Shown in pieces: positions 1 through 6,263 of a DNA stretch of 6,263 nucleotides (positions are counted from its first letter, which is position 1; each line of letters starts with the position of its first letter). Position numbers and translations under genes: made by a program. Source of the stretch: Spirochaetales bacterium (GTDB lineage: Bacteria > Spirochaetota > Spirochaetia > ARS1246). The notes beneath the pieces are model-generated. The model was given only the letters and a program-made list of their open reading frames with translations, had not been told where the DNA came from and ran no database searches. The stretch is from the NCBI GenBank assembly GCA_018644745.1, contig JABGPX010000215.1, positions 1-6,263 on the forward strand, given 5' to 3'.

Positions 1-791
1 CAGATTATCCGGTCGCGAAGGAACCATCTGTACGGGCTGTCCTCGTCGAGATGGTACACTTCCGGTGAGACTGCCGTTCCGACAACTGTGCCGTTCATAA
101 GTTTGCAGGTGAACTCCGCACGGGTGAGCATCGCCAAAGCGCCGGCAATGTCCCATAGTTTCACCGTTCCGGTATAGCCGAGAAAGCGGCCGGTCAGTAA
201 GTATGCCATGGGCAGCACAGCGCAGGCCAGCGCTTGTACCGGATTATCCAACGTAAAAGTGCCTCGCTTCACCACTGTCTGTGTAAGGGCAACCATTCCG
301 CCGACATCGGGTTTTCTTCGGACTATCTTTATAGGTTTCAGCTCCAGCTCTTCAAAAGAATCGCAAGGGTGCGTACCTGCGAGAATCTCACTCCCGGAAG
401 TGATATACATCTCTCCGGTTACCGGAAGATATATTGCACCATCGGTAATCACACCACCTTCCATTCGAGCGATTGAAATACCCCAGGTTGGGATGTGATG
501 AGCATACGGCGCGGTTCCATCGATCGGATCAATAATCCAGGCCACTTCTTCTAGCGCCTTTTCTACGTATCGATTGTCTTTTTTGTGTATTGTTTCCTCA
601 CCTATCAGATACGATCCTTCTTCCGGAATATCAAAGAGCTCCTCGAAAGCGTGTTCAATAGCGTGATCTGCTTCCGTGACTAATGACATATCCGACTTGA
701 GCCTTGCAGAGGGGCTCTCATAGTAGCTTAATGCGATCTCACCGCCCTGCCGCATTGCTGCAAGGATTTCATTCACATTCCATGTATTCAT
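1..791 (-). CDS. Inositol monophosphatase family protein (partial, C-terminus off window)
   Basis: This would be a Mg-dependent cytoplasmic phosphatase of the FIG/IMPase superfamily, hydrolysing a small phosphomonoester such as inositol phosphate, histidinol phosphate or an adenosine phosphate. The minus-strand frame is open for 263 codons to the window edge. It shows the metal-site GEE at residues 64-66, DPIDGT at 88-93 and the second metal motif WDIAG at 213-217, all at the usual family spacing. The stretch PTWGISIAR followed by GGVITDGAIYLP fits the HisN/SuhB core. The GS motif usually found before the last helix pair is replaced by DNPVQALAC (residues 182-190), and the position after DGT is AP, not the common TxNF, so the substrate cannot be named. 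I chose the ATG at 791 because MNTWNVNEILAAMRQGGEIAL aligns with typical family starts. An in-frame ATG at 818 would add nine residues. Neither start has a strong ribosome binding site. The extreme C-terminus is missing. Confidence 0.9.
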   Translation of the reverse strand, partial: MNTWNVNEILAAMRQGGEIALSYYESPSARLKSDMSLVTEADHAIEHAFEELFDIPEEGSYLIGEETIHKKDNRYVEKALEEVAWIIDPIDGTAPYAHHIPTWGISIARMEGGVITDGAIYLPVTGEMYITSGSEILAGTHPCDSFEELELKPIKIVRRKPDVGGMVALTQTVVKRGTFTLDNPVQALACAVLPMAYLLTGRFLGYTGTVKLWDIAGALAMLTRAEFTCKLMNGTVVGTAVSPEVYHLDEDSPYRWFLRDRII

Positions 792-807
792 AGGTCTTCG
801 TAACAGG

Positions 808-963
808 ATGTATCGCATACAGTCAAGCGATATTGATGATTCATTTAAAGGTGTGGTAGTTTCTGAGGATGATTACCCGTCCCCGTATACCAATATCTGT
901 GCTGCTCCCAGGGGTTGTTACAGATTTTTGCTCATCGATTCAAACTACGGTGTACTTGAATGA
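808..963 (+). CDS. Possible 51-residue small protein, coupled to the NusG-II gene
   Basis: An open frame of 51 codons starts at ATG 808, and its TGA overlaps the ATG of the next gene as ATGA (960-963), the usual signature of translational coupling. The product is acidic in its first half (SSDIDDSF, VVVSEDDYPSPY) and ends in a more hydrophobic stretch (CYRFLLIDSNYGVLE), with two cysteines. There is no signal peptide, membrane segment or recognised domain. The start lies only 16 bases from the divergent phosphatase start, leaving almost no room for promoters, and no convincing ribosome binding site precedes it (only AGG directly abutting the ATG). It could equally be chance open frame in a divergent promoter region. 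I do not recognise the protein. Confidence 0.4.
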   Translation: MYRIQSSDIDDSFKGVVVSEDDYPSPYTNICAAPRGCYRFLLIDSNYGVLE

Positions 964-1340
964 ATCGGAAACTTATGAAAATTAGACCCCTTGATTATGC
1001 CGCGGTGCTGTTTGCCCTTGGGTTGACCACCTTCGTCGCGATCGCGATCTATTCAGATGCAAGCGGATCATCTCATGTGCAGATTCGAGCCGACGGCGGC
1101 GAGTGGCTTTACGCCCTTGAAAGTGACCGAGAGCTGGAGTTTGAGGGACCACTTGGAATCACTCATATCGAAATTTCCGACGGTTCGGCCCGCGTCGTTG
1201 ACTCTCCATGCACTGAGAAAATCTGTATAAACGCGGGAGCTCTTGACTCCAGCGGAGACTGGACCGCCTGCTTACCGAATAGAATTTTCGTCAGGATAAC
1301 CGGCAATGAAGAAACCGAGATTGACGCTCTCAGTTACTAG
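960..1340 (+). CDS. NusG domain II-containing membrane-anchored protein
   Basis: This is a small protein with one N-terminal membrane helix (about residues 13-31) and an extracytoplasmic NusG-domain-II-like beta domain. The domain is recognised by the order of its elements: a strand VQIRADGGEWLYAL, then IEISDGSARVVDSPCTEKIC, a glycine (G93), and CLPNRIFVRITG near the end. The three cysteines C84, C89 and C104 sit where this family has them and could form a disulfide or redox centre. Family members are normally about 120-130 residues, so the gene looks complete. Its role is not established; from memory these genes tend to lie beside Gx-transporter genes and near FMN-transferase (ApbE) or Rnf-type redox genes, and here the Gx gene follows directly with a 35-base overlap. 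An in-frame ATG at 975 has a closer GGA ribosome binding element and may be the true start; 960 is favoured only by its ATGA coupling to the preceding ORF. Confidence 0.85.
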   Translation: MNRKLMKIRPLDYAAVLFALGLTTFVAIAIYSDASGSSHVQIRADGGEWLYALESDRELEFEGPLGITHIEISDGSARVVDSPCTEKICINAGALDSSGDWTACLPNRIFVRITGNEETEIDALSY

Positions 1341-1854
1341 GCGCGACTTAATCGCCCTGCTCGGGGCCTGCTGCATGCTCCTTTCGCTGGTGGAGCATAT
1401 GATACCAAAGCCTCTCCCGTTTCTTCGTCTCGGGCTTGCGAATTTGCCGCTTCTCATCTCTCTCGGTCTCTTGAGCGCGCCCCAGGTTATGCTGCTTGCA
1501 TCGCTCAAAGTTGTCGGCCAGGGCCTTGTGACGGGAACTCTATTTTCGTATATCTTTCTGCTCTCCGCCGCAGGCACCTTTTCCAGCGTACTTGTAATGC
1601 TTGTCGTTCGGCGAATCGGCGGGAGATACATTAGTCTTATAGGAATTAGCGTAATGGGTGCTCTTTCTAGTACAACCGCTCAGCTTGGTCTCGCGTCGGT
1701 TTTCCTCTTCGGTGCCGGCACCAGGTATATAGTCGCTCCGTTTCTTGTGGTTGGACTGGTCACTTCGGTCATTCTCGGGATCGCGGCGTCGGCATTCTGC
1801 ACCGACTCCCGCTGGTATCAGGTATCACTAATGAGAATTAATAAAGATGACTAA
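1306..1854 (+). CDS. Gx transporter family membrane protein (heptaprenyl diphosphate synthase component I-like)
   Basis: This is a very hydrophobic 182-residue protein with five to six membrane segments (about 14-32, 45-62, 68-85, 87-102, 108-135, 140-163). The signature E30-HMIPKPLPFLRLGLAN (residues 30-46) is the conserved opening of the Gx-transporter / Hpre_diP_synt_I family, followed by LKVVGQG (67-73) and the SAAGTFSSVLVML segment (87-99). Despite the old name, the family is an integral membrane group that resembles substrate-binding S components of ECF transporters; the substrate is unknown. Its ATG lies inside the end of the NusG-II gene, with AGGAT eight bases upstream, and its own stop overlaps the next start by eight bases. 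All three genes are therefore probably translated from one mRNA and may form one membrane complex. The complex is inference; the family assignment is firm. Confidence 0.88.
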   Translation: MKKPRLTLSVTRRDLIALLGACCMLLSLVEHMIPKPLPFLRLGLANLPLLISLGLLSAPQVMLLASLKVVGQGLVTGTLFSYIFLLSAAGTFSSVLVMLVVRRIGGRYISLIGISVMGALSSTTAQLGLASVFLFGAGTRYIVAPFLVVGLVTSVILGIAASAFCTDSRWYQVSLMRINKDD

Positions 1855-2479
1855 GAGCAAATCCCGGGGCCAGTATTTCCTGCCGGCATGCGGTCTTCTC
1901 ACTCTTGTCGCGGTTGCACTTCAGCCTGAAATGTATGTGCGATGCGCCCAGATGATATTTTTTATGATGCTCGCCGGGACCTCAGGAAAAAGGATTCGGA
2001 TACTTCCCCCACTGCTGCTCATGGCAGGAGTGGTTCTGGCTAATCTACTTGTTCCAAACGGAAGAGTACTGCTTATCATCGGCCGGATGAAGATTACGGG
2101 AGGAGCTCTGGAGAATGGTATATCGAAAGGTTCGCTCTTGATTGGACTCATCTATGTGTCCCGGATATCTATCGGTCGGGGCGTCGCGCTGCCGGGAGTT
2201 TTCGGCGGACTGCTGTTCCGCTCGTTTTCCTACTTCGAGGCACTGACCGAGGGCTTTCGTAATAGTTCCGGCAGGGCAGGGCGCGAACGTCTGCGGATTA
2301 AAGGTCTTTTGAACCATCTCGACACGCTGCTCCTCGAGCTGGATGAATCTGCCGGCTCCTTTCAAGAAAAAAACCAGACGGCAGCCGCTGCACCCGTGGA
2401 CCGTCGGAAGCTTGTGACCGGTATATTTCTCCTGACGGCGGGATGGATCCCGTATGCGGTGGTTCTTATCTTTTGGTAA
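1847..2479 (+). CDS. Membrane protein, possibly an ECF-transporter T-component-like (EcfT/CbiQ) protein
   Basis: This is a 210-residue membrane protein with hydrophobic segments at about 12-26, 33-45, 52-70, 96-125 and 188-209. It begins with a basic tail and has a long polar, probably cytoplasmic stretch (about 134-188) holding RNSSGRAGRERLRIKGLL, then a C-terminal membrane helix. The middle part, GALENGISKGSLLIGLIYVS followed by RISI and then LPGVFGGLLFRSFSYFEALTEGF, recalls the layout of EcfT/CbiQ proteins: a Gly-rich turn, a membrane helix ending in arginine, then a coupling-type helix. I see no clean copy of the A-R-G motifs that bind the ATPases, and no ATPase gene is present in the window, so the call is tentative. 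The start overlaps the preceding stop, arguing for coupled expression with the Gx-transporter gene. It may be a family-specific partner with no ATPase. Confidence 0.6.
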   Translation: MTKSKSRGQYFLPACGLLTLVAVALQPEMYVRCAQMIFFMMLAGTSGKRIRILPPLLLMAGVVLANLLVPNGRVLLIIGRMKITGGALENGISKGSLLIGLIYVSRISIGRGVALPGVFGGLLFRSFSYFEALTEGFRNSSGRAGRERLRIKGLLNHLDTLLLELDESAGSFQEKNQTAAAAPVDRRKLVTGIFLLTAGWIPYAVVLIFW

Positions 2480-2562: not shown

Positions 2563-2871
2563 GTGAAGAAGCTTGCTGCCGTGTTCATCGTCATTTCAAA
2601 CATAGTCGGAGTAGTAGGAGCTCAAAGTGTCATTCAGCCAGTCCTTGAAAAACACGAGTTTCGCCGCTCGGTCGCAGATAACGTTTCGAAAGGCGCGATT
2701 CTTTCCGCTTTTTTCGGAACAGTTTACTACTTCATCGCGGAAGACTCGAACTCTGGATCTGCTTCTGTCGGTTTAACCGCGGGAGTGGCTGGAGTTGTTG
2801 GGTTTATCGGTGGAATTGTTGTTTCAAATCGTGCGAGTGAGCATATCGAGCGTTTGACCTTCGCTGCTTAA
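2563..2871 (+). CDS. Exported small protein with glycine-rich membrane segments (front part of an interrupted gene)
   Basis: The product is 102 residues from a GTG start with an excellent ribosome binding site. It opens with a signal peptide (MKKLAAVFIVISNIVGVVGA, cleavage predicted after A20), followed by a charged amphipathic stretch (QPVLEKHEFRRSVADNVSKG) and two hydrophobic segments, 45-59 and 69-88. The second (VGLTAGVAGVVGFIGGIVVS) is glycine-rich like a helical hairpin. It then reads ASEHIERLTFAA to a TAA stop. The frame continues open for another 71 codons immediately after that stop (see 2872-3087), so this is probably the front part of a longer protein of about 174 residues. No family is recognised for this part. 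It has its own gap and ribosome site after the membrane operon, so it is probably a separate transcript, pointing toward the minus-strand radical SAM gene. Confidence 0.7.
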   Translation: MKKLAAVFIVISNIVGVVGAQSVIQPVLEKHEFRRSVADNVSKGAILSAFFGTVYYFIAEDSNSGSASVGLTAGVAGVVGFIGGIVVSNRASEHIERLTFAA

Positions 2872-3106: not shown

Positions 3107-4564
3107 CTACACTCTGGTGAGAATTTGTCCCGAATGAGCCCCGCACGATTCTGAGATTTCGTCACTTCCATTTGTTCTATAAAAGCCGAACTCCTGCAGA
3201 ACCCGCATTTTAGGAAGAATATTTCCCGCGATGTCGTAATGATAAAAACCAGGGAAAATGTCCTTATTGTCTTGAATGAAACGATAGATGAACTGGTAAT
3301 GAGATTCTATTTCAATGCCGGATCCACGGCAGGTTTCATGGCCGGTTATCATATACTCAGGCATCATTTCATAACTGAACTCTAATCGTTCTTTGTCGAC
3401 CTCGTGGTAAATTCGAGTTTGAGGTAGGTAGCAGAGAAGCGAGGGAAGGACACGAACTCCCATTATTCGGAAGGAATTCATGAGAAAAACCGATTGGTAG
3501 AATTGATCCATCGATTCGAAGGGATACCCCCAAACAAAAAAGGCATCAACTCCCTGGAATATCTCTTTTGCTTCGGATATCACCTCGATGGCTTGCTCCG
3601 GATCGAATCCCTTTACGATCCTTTGCAGAATCTCTGCCGATCCGGACTCGACTCCGAAACGGAGCTCGATGCAACCGCTTCTCGACATGAGCTCCATCGC
3701 TTCACGGTCCACAAGATTCACCCGTCCAAAGGCCTTCCATTTTATATTGAGGTCGGCATCTAGCAGCTTCCGGGAAAACTCCTTCGCTCTCTCGGGGCTG
3801 GCCAAAAAATATTCATCTTGGAATAGGTAAAGTTCTTTGCCGGTCCGTTTCTGTATCATTTCGATCTCGCCGATAATATTATCCGCGGAGCGCAGATATG
3901 GCTCGAAGTCCCAAATTGGCGCAACCGAACAGAAGCTGCATTTAAAGGGACACCCACGAGAGGTGAGAATGTTTATAGCGCCGTAACGGCTGATATCGAT
4001 TTTTTCATAGGCTGGATATGCTATCTCGTCCAGGCAGCTTAACCGCGGGCACGGCGGATTTTGAGTAATGTTACCGTTGTTACGAAAAAAAATATTAGGG
4101 CACCCGCCAAGATCCTCATGGTTAACAAGGGCCTCCAAAAGCATTGGCCCGGCAAAATCGAATTCCCCGTATGCAATAATATCGATATATTCAAATTGCT
4201 CAAGAATCGTTTCTTCAACAGCTTTTGCGCCCACGCCGCCGAGAATGATGGTTTTGTCAGGATTGACCGTTTTTATTTCCTTTGATAGCAGCAATGCAAA
4301 CGGCAGAAGGTTGGCCATGACGGAAATCCCGATAATATCTGCCGCGTCGCTTAGGAAATCCATACAGTTTGATATAAGAAAGGGATCCTTATACTCTGAG
4401 CATTGATAATCCCTGAAATCTACCGAAAAACCGGCGTCTTCCAGCGCCCGTGTTAGGTAAAGCGGCCCAAGGGGTATGTGAAGCTCCCGGTCAATCCGGT
4501 CGTAGTATTTTAGATAGAGCATGTTAAGATTCAGAATAGTAATATCCGCGGTAACCCTGCTCAT
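3107..4564 (-). CDS. Radical SAM protein with N-terminal B12-binding-type domain
   Basis: This is a 485-residue enzyme of the cobalamin-dependent radical SAM type (class B layout). Residues 6-150 form a Rossmann-like B12-binding-type domain: ITILNLNMLYL at the start, PLGPLYLTRALEDAGF (31-46), ADIIGISVM (75-83), IILGGVGA (106-113) and IDIIAYGEFD (127-136). The radical SAM core follows, with the 4Fe-4S motif CPFKCSFC (C205, C209, C212), the strand LYLFQDEYF (246-254), and GVESGS (304-309), where the SAM ribose and substrate pocket normally lies. The B12 domain lacks the DxHxxG histidine that ligates cobalt, so cobalamin, if bound, would be base-off without that ligand. The remaining C-terminal part (about 385-485) is family-specific. 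Its ATG overlaps the stop of the upstream gene as ATGA, preceded by a GA-rich GAGGGCGG site. The likely substrate is the neighbouring leader-bearing protein; that is inference. Other possible roles are methylation or C-C/C-S bond formation. Confidence 0.9.
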   Translation of the reverse strand: MSRVTADITILNLNMLYLKYYDRIDRELHIPLGPLYLTRALEDAGFSVDFRDYQCSEYKDPFLISNCMDFLSDAADIIGISVMANLLPFALLLSKEIKTVNPDKTIILGGVGAKAVEETILEQFEYIDIIAYGEFDFAGPMLLEALVNHEDLGGCPNIFFRNNGNITQNPPCPRLSCLDEIAYPAYEKIDISRYGAINILTSRGCPFKCSFCSVAPIWDFEPYLRSADNIIGEIEMIQKRTGKELYLFQDEYFLASPERAKEFSRKLLDADLNIKWKAFGRVNLVDREAMELMSRSGCIELRFGVESGSAEILQRIVKGFDPEQAIEVISEAKEIFQGVDAFFVWGYPFESMDQFYQSVFLMNSFRIMGVRVLPSLLCYLPQTRIYHEVDKERLEFSYEMMPEYMITGHETCRGSGIEIESHYQFIYRFIQDNKDIFPGFYHYDIAGNILPKMRVLQEFGFYRTNGSDEISESCGAHSGQILTRV

Positions 4565-5526
4565 TTGTCCGCCCTCTTCACCCCGAAAACCACACCCGAG
4601 TAATTATCGTCGGCATCGATAACGAAAAGGTAATGTTTGCCCATCGTGATTTTTCCGGGGAGAGGAATCGCATGTATTCCGCGTGTATCCGCGATGCGCT
4701 CTCCATCTAGATACCATTCGAGAGCCGCGTCGTTATTCTCGTGGCTTGCGTTCATTACGATCTTTTCGACGGTTTGTCCTTTAATAAAAATATTGTCGTT
4801 GTCCTTCGGGAATATGATAGCGACCGGATTAGGATGCCAGAATGCGTGCTTTTCCGTTTCAATCGGCGGTCCGATGCCGTTGCCCGATTCGAATGCCGTC
4901 AATGGCCCATCATTTCGAATAAGTGCGTAGTTCTCTGCCGACATATCAGTTCTCGAAATTCCCATATATCGGTATTGAAGGTGCCATTCGTAATATGGCA
5001 CGTCAGTTTTGACAAATGATTCTAATGGACCGTCGAGCAGCCACTGCAGCGTTGAGGGAAAACTGCCATTATTCTCTATTGCATAGCTCAAGAGCGCCTC
5101 TTGTACAGATTGAAGATCAAGCTGCGCATATAGCTGTGCAACGGCTATGGGACTTACCGAATTCTCTTCACGTGCTCCTCCGGACCACGCAAAAGGGGGT
5201 TGTACAAACGAAGTAGCAATTACGATAGCAAGCATAGCGGCGGCTTTCGATCCCATGAACGTATTTACATGGTGTTTAGGAACATCAATAAAATCGATCA
5301 TTTTTTCCATTATTGCTCGATTGGTATTGGCGAGAATCAATTGTTCGCTGGCAGTAAGATTCAAGCCGATTGATATGGCGGATTCCTCGGGAGTCCTCAA
5401 CAATAGTTGGCGAAATTGCTGGTCGACTTTGGCTTTTTTTAAAAGAATCTCGATACCACGTGGACACTCAACCGGGTACCCATCATAGCTAGATCGGCCG
5501 CCTACTATTGTTTTTCCGATTTTCAT
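4561..5526 (-). CDS. Leader-like N-terminus, export segment, pseudopilin-like region and C-terminal Ig-like domain (candidate substrate of the radical SAM enzyme)
   Basis: This is a 321-residue mosaic. Residues 1-90 are cytoplasmic and helical: VGGRSSYDGYPVECPRGIEI, then LLKKAKVDQQFRQLLLRTPE with ESAISIGLNLTASEQLIL. This resembles the leader segments of precursors encoded beside radical SAM enzymes, whose pattern DxxFRxLLxxPEEAAxxIGLxLTxxE I recall from memory. A hydrophobic export segment follows (94-113, AAAMLAIVIATSFVQPPFAW). Residues 128-210 look like the globular part of a type II secretion pseudopilin: LDLQSVQEALLSYAIENNGS with FPS, then the HLQYRYMG strand and YALIRNDGP, analogous to the NG.YP and S.GpDG motifs of GspG. 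Residues 230-318 (HPNPVAIIFPKDNDNIFIKG, LEWYLDGERI, GKHYLFVIDADDNYSGVVF) match the BiPBP_C type Ig-like domain of penicillin-binding protein 1C. The start ATG 5526 is preceded by GAGGTGG, four bases away. It is the first gene of a two-gene operon. The domain calls are by eye, and the leader assignment is the least certain. Confidence 0.75.
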   Translation of the reverse strand: MKIGKTIVGGRSSYDGYPVECPRGIEILLKKAKVDQQFRQLLLRTPEESAISIGLNLTASEQLILANTNRAIMEKMIDFIDVPKHHVNTFMGSKAAAMLAIVIATSFVQPPFAWSGGAREENSVSPIAVAQLYAQLDLQSVQEALLSYAIENNGSFPSTLQWLLDGPLESFVKTDVPYYEWHLQYRYMGISRTDMSAENYALIRNDGPLTAFESGNGIGPPIETEKHAFWHPNPVAIIFPKDNDNIFIKGQTVEKIVMNASHENNDAALEWYLDGERIADTRGIHAIPLPGKITMGKHYLFVIDADDNYSGVVFGVKRADK

Positions 5527-5805: not shown

Positions 5806-6263
5806 ATGATTGCTGCATATCTGGAGCGGGCCGGAAAGCTGTCTTTGAGGGAAGTTGATACGCCTGATTATGCCAGCGATGAGGTGCTGGTGAGGGTTTA
5901 TGCCACCGGTATCTGCGGCAGCGATCTGCACTACTTCAGGGATGGCAGGATCAAGAATAACATCATCACCGAGCCGCTGATCCTCGGTCATGAGTCATCG
6001 GGCACAGTTGCTGGACTCGGATCTGATGTTACCCACCTCCGCGAGGGCGACAGGGTCACGATTGAGCCGGGGGTTCCCTGCCTCAAATGCGAGCACTGCC
6101 TCTCAGGCAGGTACAATCTCTGCGTAAATGTAATGTTCCTCGGCGCGCCCCCCTCCCACGGATCATTCAGGGAGTTCATCAGCCACAAGGCCCTTTTTGT
6201 GCATAAACTTCCGGAGAATGCCTCTTTTGAAGATGGTGCCTGTATTGAGCCGCTTGCCGTCGG
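5806..6263 (+). CDS. Zinc-dependent sorbitol/xylitol (L-iditol 2-) dehydrogenase-type protein (partial, N-terminal part)
   Basis: This is a cytoplasmic medium-chain dehydrogenase that would oxidise a polyol such as sorbitol or xylitol to the ketose with NAD. The first 152 residues are present. Catalytic zinc ligands are visible: C38 in TGICGSDLHYF (35-44), H62 and E63 in LGHESSGTV (60-68), and E148 in IEPLAV. The structural zinc lobe C92-x2-C95-x2-C98-x7-C106 is intact. The HYFRDGRI stretch after CGSD and the FLGAPPSHGSFREFI segment (111-125) are typical of the sorbitol/xylitol branch, not of threonine or alcohol dehydrogenases. The nucleotide-binding half lies beyond the window. ATG 5806 is chosen for the GGAG site ending five bases upstream. 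Carbohydrate-dependent control is suggested by the palindromes over its promoter. Exact substrate cannot be given from this part alone. Confidence 0.92.
   Translation, partial: MIAAYLERAGKLSLREVDTPDYASDEVLVRVYATGICGSDLHYFRDGRIKNNIITEPLILGHESSGTVAGLGSDVTHLREGDRVTIEPGVPCLKCEHCLSGRYNLCVNVMFLGAPPSHGSFREFISHKALFVHKLPENASFEDGACIEPLAV

What the first reader, a model, noticed from the sequence alone, without database searches (positions are those of the whole stretch)
3107..5526. Candidate modification system: radical SAM/B12 enzyme coupled to a large envelope protein with a peptide-leader-like N-terminus
Two genes overlap by ATGA. The upstream product has an N-terminal segment (residues 1-90) with the helix pattern KKAxxDxxFRxLLxxPEExAxxIGLxLTxxE typical, as I recall, of leaders of radical-SAM-processed precursors. 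The downstream product is a B12-type radical SAM enzyme, so the pairing suggests enzyme and substrate. Unlike ordinary precursors, what follows the leader is an export segment and about 200 residues of folded-looking extracytoplasmic domains instead of a short core peptide. The enzyme could modify the leader, the export segment or a site before export. The only cysteine is C21, so cysteine-thioether chemistry in the body of the protein is excluded.
Basis: partly seen in the sequence, partly recalled or inferred. Interest (0 to 1): 0.75.

Follow-up and report, generated by a model that had tools for sequence, protein, structure and literature searches.

The report
Radical enzyme paired with exported protein
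Two touching genes look like a vitamin-B12 radical enzyme and the exported protein it probably edits, and the same pairing, with differing exported parts, recurs in many bacterial phyla; no description of it turned up in the papers searched.

Summary
Gene A (4561-5526, minus) and gene B (3107-4564, minus) overlap by ATGA. Residues 22-90 of A match NCBIfam's Os1348/NHLP leader model, below its cut-off; all 45 relatives' segments tested match too. B is a B12-binding radical SAM protein, closest among solved structures to MgmA, a protein C-methylase. A leader protein accompanies B's relatives in 60 of 70 loci; eight of the ten exceptions are cut close to the enzyme. In genome surveys 28 of 30 leader-positive genomes have the orthologue. 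A disordered N-terminal motif, TIVG, is in 59 of 60 leader loci. In relatives the leader precedes Tat- or lipoprotein-like signals, varied cargo and recurrent G-x-R-P-D motifs (108 found, 0.2 in shuffles). The window protein keeps one degenerate copy (GAREE) after its export segment, before GspG-like and Ig-like domains. Best reading: leader-guided modification, probably C-methylation, of a protein before export. Reaction, modified residue and function are untested. Interest 0.72; new variant of a known kind.

The parts
4561..5526 (-). Gene A: 321-aa exported protein with leader-like N-terminus (putative substrate)
5491..5511 (-). TIVGGRS motif, residues 6-12, predicted disordered
   Evidence: TIVG invariant in 45 of 45 aligned segments (rows were mostly chosen with the motif); in 72 of 99 leader ORFs and at least once in 59 of 60 leader loci; pLDDT under 50 for residues 1-19
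5257..5463 (-). Os1348/NHLP-type helical leader domain, residues 22-90
5185..5256 (-). Hydrophobic export segment, residues 91-114; no twin Arg in this copy
   Evidence: sequence; helix 93-106 in the model
5164..5181 (-). GGAREE, residues 116-121: degenerate copy of the family's G-x-R-P-D motif, beside a plausible signal-peptidase site (A-W-S)
   Evidence: Gly in 35 of 36 aligned relatives at residue 117; Arg in 6 of 36 at residue 119; cleavage site is inference
4837..5151 (-). GspG (pseudopilin)-like domain, residues 126-230
   Evidence: PF08334 in aligned relatives (L002 above cut-off); not reported for the window copy itself; no prepilin-type cleavage pattern found in A
4603..4833 (-). BiPBP_C Ig-like domain, residues 232-308
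   Evidence: PF06832 E 5.5e-10, 39.4 bits over cut-off 26.8; Fn3/Ig folds lead the Foldseek list
4561..4564 (-). ATGA start/stop overlap of the two genes
3107..4564 (-). Gene B: 485-aa B12-binding radical SAM protein (putative modifying enzyme)
4163..4480 (-). B12-binding domain of gene B (residues 29-134)
   Evidence: PF02310 E 4.4e-12
3491..3967 (-). Radical SAM domain of gene B (residues 200-358)
   Evidence: PF04055 E 4.7e-17
3929..3952 (-). CxxxCxxC motif of gene B (C205, C209, C212)
   Evidence: invariant in A2 and A4; role is established knowledge of the superfamily
3131..3151 (-). C-terminal tail ESCGAHS of gene B (residues 472-478)
   Evidence: CGAH[ST] near the end of 65 of 70 rSAM ORFs; pLDDT under 50 for 466-476

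Best explanation
Gene B is a B12-dependent radical SAM enzyme that modifies the product of gene A in the cytoplasm before export. Shown by sequence: the pairing, the NHLP-type leader, the conserved TIVG motif, the export segment and the exported domains. Inferred: the helical leader and/or TIVGG docks the enzyme; the enzyme alters the Gly-centred motif (G-x-R-P-D-x-P in many relatives, GAREE here), possibly also TIVGGR, most likely by C-methylation as in its nearest solved relative MgmA; the protein is then exported, and signal peptidase may remove leader and signal together, leaving the motif at or near the new N-terminus of a pseudopilin-like/Ig-like envelope protein. My estimates: the enzyme acts on this protein 0.85; by C-methylation 0.55; mainly at the Gly motif 0.4 (lowered from 0.45 on recount, because 26 of 99 leader proteins lack the loose motif, several of them with cargo like the window's).
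For: Leader identity. A leader protein with the enzyme in 60 of 70 loci; 46 of the 58 pairs measured lie within 50 nt or overlap (start codons approximate); one to six leader ORFs per locus. 28 of 30 strong leader-positive survey genomes have the orthologue (675 bits or more; next class 212 or less); in the two phyla where the enzyme was searched in the whole survey set, 16 of 16 orthologue-bearing genomes have the leader. Strict motif 108 times in 14,190 residues after the leader, 0.2 in shuffles, 11 in 744,671 residues of control ORFs. Nearest solved enzyme by sequence and by fold is 9ccb, named MgmA, which makes 2-methylglutamine in a protein (PMC11796369, start of abstract in a search listing); best NCBIfam hit is ApyD, a peptide Tyr beta-carbon methylase (PMC10635010, passages).
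Against: No biochemical data. The window's NF038399 match is under the curated cut-off. The window's clade has largely lost the canonical motif (Arg in 6 of 36). 26 of 99 leader ORFs lack even the loose motif, 27 of 99 lack TIVG and 11 lack both, so neither motif is needed in every leader protein. Several of these 11 have pseudopilin-like tails by eye (L007, L025, L045, L048), the cargo kind of the window. In genome G020 leader and enzyme are on different contigs. 9ccb shares only 22% identity in the fold alignment, and B12-binding radical SAM enzymes also do non-methylating chemistry and act on small molecules.
Confidence: 0.7

Rival explanations
1. TIVGGRP itself, not the Gly motif of the exported part, is the modification site; the helical domain after it is a follower-type recognition element, and the modified tail, cut off with the signal, is the product.
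For: At least one TIVG copy in 59 of 60 leader loci; the exception, L051, has its leader ORF cut by the contig start. Kept in the window clade, where G-x-R-P-D has decayed.
Against: 27 of 99 leader ORFs lack it but keep the leader, and 9 of those 27 have the strict G-x-R-P-D motif, 16 the loose one. A modification there would be lost from the mature protein if the signal is cleaved.
Confidence: 0.25
2. The enzyme installs a non-methyl change at the motif (epimerisation, cross-link, cleavage), for instance to anchor or process the exported protein.
For: Repeated Gly/Pro-rich motifs near chain ends and after the signal; the conserved CGAHS tail of the enzyme has no explanation here.
Against: The nearest solved and named relatives include methylases.
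Confidence: 0.25
3. The enzyme acts on a small molecule or lipid, and the leader protein is a carrier or partner rather than the substrate.
For: Some relatives carry a phosphopantetheine-binding domain (L028 above cut-off; P0061); HpnJ and the ladderane-type lipid enzyme are among the NCBIfam hits, below cut-off; AprD4, OxsB, CysS and TokK are among the solved matches.
Against: Other cargo domains are unrelated (GspG/BiPBP_C, TonB_C, CarboxypepD_reg); no biosynthesis gene stood out among recurring neighbours; the constant parts are the leader and short motifs.
Confidence: 0.1

Closest known systems
Os1348 / NHLP leader clan (RiPP precursors)
   Same: Helical leader domain; 45 of 45 segments match NF038399. 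Os1348 has a crystal structure as a dimer and suspected modification genes downstream (PMC7726476, passages)
   Different: Os1348 is an 85-aa protein; here the leader is followed by an export signal and whole folded domains, and the constant partner is a B12 radical SAM enzyme
MgmA and Mmp10, B12 radical SAM methylases of methyl-coenzyme M reductase
   Same: They modify a residue inside a protein; MgmA (9ccb) is the top match by sequence and fold
   Different: Mmp10 acts on an Arg (PMC8828468, passages), MgmA on a Gln (PMC11796369, listing); no leader or export that I know of; 22% identity in the fold alignment
ApyD (aminopyruvatide B12 radical SAM C-methylase)
   Same: Best NCBIfam hit, 146 bits; peptide substrate
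   Different: Far under its cut-off of 750; ApyD contains an RRE and works with a P450, an MNIO and a methyltransferase (PMC10635010, passages)
QhpD/QhpC (quinohemoprotein amine dehydrogenase maturation)
   Same: Leader-dependent radical SAM modification of a protein in the cytoplasm before it goes to the periplasm (PMC7876137, passages)
   Different: QhpD makes Cys-to-Asp/Glu thioethers; QhpE cuts the leader and QhpF exports; here no conserved Cys in the window protein and no recurring protease or transporter seen
Bufferins (MNIO-modified precursors with Sec signals)
   Same: Modified precursors with signal peptides, some lipoproteins and some large fusions (PMC12452194, passages)
   Different: MNIO enzyme and Cys motifs; there signal peptides stand in for typical leaders, here an NHLP leader precedes the signal

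Membership tests
Os1348/NHLP leader clan | Leader domain matches the clan model | tested here: met
   NF038399 hit by 45 of 45 segments at E 0.01 or better; the window copy, 29.6 bits, is under the curated cut-off of 40
RiPP precursor | Leader followed by a core that a linked enzyme modifies | tested here: inconclusive
   Leader and linkage found; the recurrent motif is a candidate core; the modification itself needs an experiment
RiPP precursor | Short peptide product | tested here: not met
   The part after the export segment is about 200 residues with folded domains
B12-dependent radical SAM enzyme | B12-binding domain plus radical SAM domain with CxxxCxxC | tested here: met
   PF02310 and PF04055 above cut-offs; C205, C209, C212 invariant
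B12-dependent radical SAM enzyme | Binds cobalamin and cleaves SAM | not testable with these tools
   needs the protein
MgmA (TIGR04014 equivalog) | Scores over the equivalog cut-off | tested here: not met
   70.1 bits against 360
ApyD (NF050148 equivalog) | Scores over the equivalog cut-off | tested here: not met
   146.4 bits against 750
RiPP maturation radical SAM C-methyltransferases (TIGR03975) | Scores over the subfamily cut-off | tested here: not met
   72.7 bits against 281.85
GspG major pseudopilin | Prepilin-type cleavage motif at the start of the hydrophobic helix (motif recalled) | tested here: not met
   No match to a loose prepilin pattern anywhere in A

The most novel reading that the evidence does not exclude
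A widespread, undescribed class of protein modification: an NHLP leader fused in front of a Tat/Sec/lipoprotein signal routes many different envelope proteins through one B12 radical SAM enzyme, which modifies a Gly-centred motif (G-[I/V/A/S]-R-P-D-x-P) in the exported part, perhaps at the Gly alpha-carbon, as MgmA does at Gln. The motif would be a portable, genetically encoded tag on unrelated cargo rather than a peptide natural product.
Probability: 0.37. Interest if true: 0.88.

Novelty: new variant of a known kind. Interest (0 to 1): 0.72.

Why it matters
If right, radical SAM tailoring guided by a peptide-type leader is used on whole exported proteins, with changeable cargo, in bacteria under 15 phylum-level labels (by submitters' titles). 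It offers a ready substrate-enzyme pair, two defined candidate sites and many natural variants, so the reaction can be tested directly. It would also widen what counts as a precursor in genome mining, which, as I understand it, looks mostly for short peptides.

Tried and rejected
Chance or neighbour-only linkage: rejected by the genome surveys. Cysteine thioether chemistry on the window protein: C21 is its only Cys and is not conserved. A lipobox-like Cys near the end of the hydrophobic segment is found in 41 of 90 leader ORFs outside the window clade (loose pattern), which I read as lipidation. A larger biosynthetic cluster: clustering of neighbouring ORFs of 100 aa or more (the 25 largest groups looked at) gave groups in 16, 10 or fewer loci that, by their sequences' starts, look like common families or antisense frames; none was scanned against families. 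Foldseek of the substrate model lists mainly Ig/Fn3 folds in its top 50 and does not show the GspG part. The first genome-contig scan, with protein A, found no relative. Thioredoxin-like, hydrolase-like and STN-like cargo were seen by eye only; of 20 leader proteins scanned, Pfam reported a cargo domain above cut-off for L002, L028, L037 and L046, plus a borderline NNH6 hit in L067 without a passing stretch.

Rows dropped before counts: G442, G443 and G863 (leader matches of 25 to 43 bits; no orthologue) from the 33 survey positives, leaving 30; L070 (27% identity) from the 70 fetched loci, with the window added, giving 70. Two strong leader-positive genomes lack the orthologue: G486 (the leader frame continues into what reads as the enzyme's C-terminal end, L109: a decayed locus as it stands) and G714 (leader at a contig end, L132). 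One search counted 58 of 70; L009 (overlapping leader, my start guess failed) and L018 (leaders downstream) were added, and recounts 60 loci with a leader on the enzyme's strand. Loci without one: L005, L026, L039, L058, L062, L065, L068, L069 (0.6 kb or less before the enzyme), L059 (none in 9 kb upstream; the contig ends just after the match), L041 (leader on another contig of the genome). The gap of 2789 for L001 is an artefact of my start guess. 26 of the 47 genomes had been reached through the enzyme; the 28-of-30 count uses only genomes that the four leader surveys returned, some of which had also been reached that way. The enzyme was not searched in leader-negative Spirochaetota and Planctomycetota genomes. 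The surveys of Spirochaetota and Planctomycetota are samples of larger groups, and the tool scored only the best 12-25 first-look candidates per genome in the three large surveys.

Literature: searches listed no paper that by title or abstract concerns this pairing; the library lacks most subscription journals, so this does not prove novelty.

Full report
What is in the window. Two genes on the minus strand overlap by ATGA at 4561-4564: A (321 aa, 4561-5526) and B (485 aa, 3107-4564). A carries BiPBP_C and a leader segment matching NCBIfam NF038399, Os1348 family NHLP clan, below its curated cut-off. B has B12-binding and Radical_SAM domains. No whole genome is held for the window.

Relatives of A. 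One search lists 65 proteins, the window's own among them. P0002-P0057 resemble it over 62-100% of its length (P0057 lacks the first part of the leader); 37 of the 65 carry precomputed T2SSG (my hand count). P0058-P0065 match only over 26-32% of the query, the N-terminal part, and go on differently: an ACP domain (P0061 by Pfam) or proline-rich stretches with repeated G-x-R-P-D. In the alignment of 36, TIVGGR and PRGIEILLKKAKVD are nearly invariant; C21 is not. The model has confident helices at 23-90 and low confidence at 1-19 and 103-119. The segment thus looks like a folded leader preceded by a disordered, conserved tail.

Relatives of B. 1516 proteins scored at E 1e-20 or better, 120 listed, among the 7998 candidates scored; listed full-length identities run from 74% to 59%, then from 55% down. 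A scan of genome contigs gave 70 loci. A tree of 64 enzymes puts the window with three Spirochaetota and two Chloroflexota enzymes (support 100/100); 15 phylum-level labels occur, by submitters' titles. By my reading the leader proteins of these six loci are of the GspG kind.

Linkage. An HMM of 62 leader segments found 99 leader ORFs in 60 of the 70 loci counted (69 fetched plus the window): 39 loci have one, 21 have two to six. The ten without are listed under Tried and rejected. Of 58 pairs measured, 46 lie within 50 nt or overlap (start codons approximate). Leader surveys: Spirochaetota 4 of 296 genomes, Planctomycetota 11 of 392, Myxococcota 7 of 195, the phylum of G011, which holds Riflebacteria, 11 of 39. 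Three of these 33 are weak and were dropped. Of the 30 others, 28 have the enzyme's orthologue at 675 bits or more, the next class of radical SAM proteins scoring 212 or less. In the phylum of G011 the orthologue is in the same 11 of 39 genomes; in Myxococcota in 5 of 195, all leader-positive.

Motifs. G[ISVAM]RPD occurs 108 times in the 14,190 residues after the leader of 99 leader ORFs, against 0.2 in shuffles, and 11 times in 744,671 residues of 2300 other ORFs of the loci, which include non-genes. The extended logo reads T-R-G-I-R-P-D-x-P. 57 of 99 have the strict motif and 73 the loose one. The first copy is often soon after the hydrophobic segment, the last often near the C-terminus. In the window clade the same place holds G followed mostly by V or I, Gly in 35 of 36, Arg at the third place in 6 of 36; the window reads GAREE. 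In four Riflebacteria orthologues some copies are kept in all four and others are not, while nearby linkers vary (by eye). TIVG is in 72 of 99 leader ORFs, followed by G in 65, P in 6 and A in 1, and at least once in 59 of 60 loci. 11 of 99 have neither TIVG nor the loose motif. Outside the window clade 38 of 90 leader ORFs have RRx plus a hydrophobic residue or Ala before the hydrophobic segment, and 41 of 90 a lipobox-like Cys (loose patterns, no shuffle control); 2 of 45 segments match the TAT_signal_seq model.

Cargo. Among 20 proteins scanned, Pfam gave above cut-off T2SSG with BiPBP_C (L002), phosphopantetheine-binding (L028), TonB_C (L037), CarboxypepD_reg (L046) and a borderline NNH6 (L067); the other 15 gave no domain above cut-off.

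The enzyme. By sequence the best of seven solved matches is 9ccb, then AprD4, OxsB, CysS and TokK; by fold 9ccb again, titled methyl-coenzyme M reductase glutamine methylase (MgmA), TM-score 0.70 by target length and 0.61 by query, 22% identity. MgmA makes 2-methylglutamine (PMC11796369, start of abstract). ApyD, the best NCBIfam match though far below cut-off, methylates the beta-carbon of a peptide Tyr (PMC10635010, passages). These point to C-methylation without proving it. The enzymes end in an [E/D][S/C]CGAHS-type tail; CGAH[ST] is in 65 of 70 ORFs, missing in L056, L057, L059, L067 and L069, some of them cut or frame-broken. I found no explanation for it.

How it most likely works (inference from here on). 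Leader and TIVGG dock the substrate; Os1348 itself is a dimer in its crystal (PMC7726476, passages), so leader proteins without TIVGG might be served through a partner that has it. The enzyme, oxygen-sensitive as radical SAM enzymes are, works in the cytoplasm; the modified protein is exported, by a Tat-like signal in many relatives and probably by Sec in the window clade. A-W-S before GGAREE is a plausible signal-peptidase site, which would put the Gly motif at the new N-terminus. Function is unknown; since cargo differs so much, the modified motif may matter for location, anchoring or stability rather than for catalysis.

What it is not shown to be. I do not file it as a RiPP in the strict sense, because no short product is evident; it works like leader-guided modification. 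The nearest precedents for modifying a protein before export that I looked at are QhpD/QhpC (PMC7876137, passages) and bufferins (PMC12452194, passages). Searches for this pairing listed no paper on it in the held library. On recount I lowered the weight on the Gly motif as the site from 0.45 to 0.4 and the novel case from 0.4 to 0.37, because some leader proteins with window-like cargo lack both motifs.

Noticed in passing
window 3131-3151 (-): The radical SAM enzymes end in a conserved [E/D][S/C]CGAHS-type tail predicted disordered; possible catalytic or cofactor-binding tail.
   Followed up: partly
L109 (genome G486): A leader frame runs directly into what reads as the C-terminal end of the enzyme, and one search found no orthologue in that genome: apparently a decayed locus.
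   Followed up: partly
L078 and L041 (genome G020): Leader protein and enzyme on different contigs of one genome: possible action in trans, or a split assembly.
   Followed up: no
L122, L127, L144: Extra leader-bearing proteins on contigs away from the enzyme locus; possible further substrates.
   Followed up: no
L007:8208-9032, L025:11495-12430 (-), L045:4250-5610, L048:11875-12860: Leader proteins lacking both TIVG and G-x-R-P-D whose tails look pseudopilin-like by eye, outside the window clade.
   Followed up: no
window 960-2479 (+): A NusG_II protein, a heptaprenyl diphosphate synthase component I-like protein and a third protein without a Pfam family above cut-off, in a row.
   Followed up: no
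window 2563-2871 (+): Small hydrophobic protein (102 aa) with no Pfam or NCBIfam family above cut-off.
   Followed up: no
window 3-818 (-) and 5806-6261 (+): Inositol monophosphatase-like and alcohol dehydrogenase-like genes, both running off the window.
   Followed up: no
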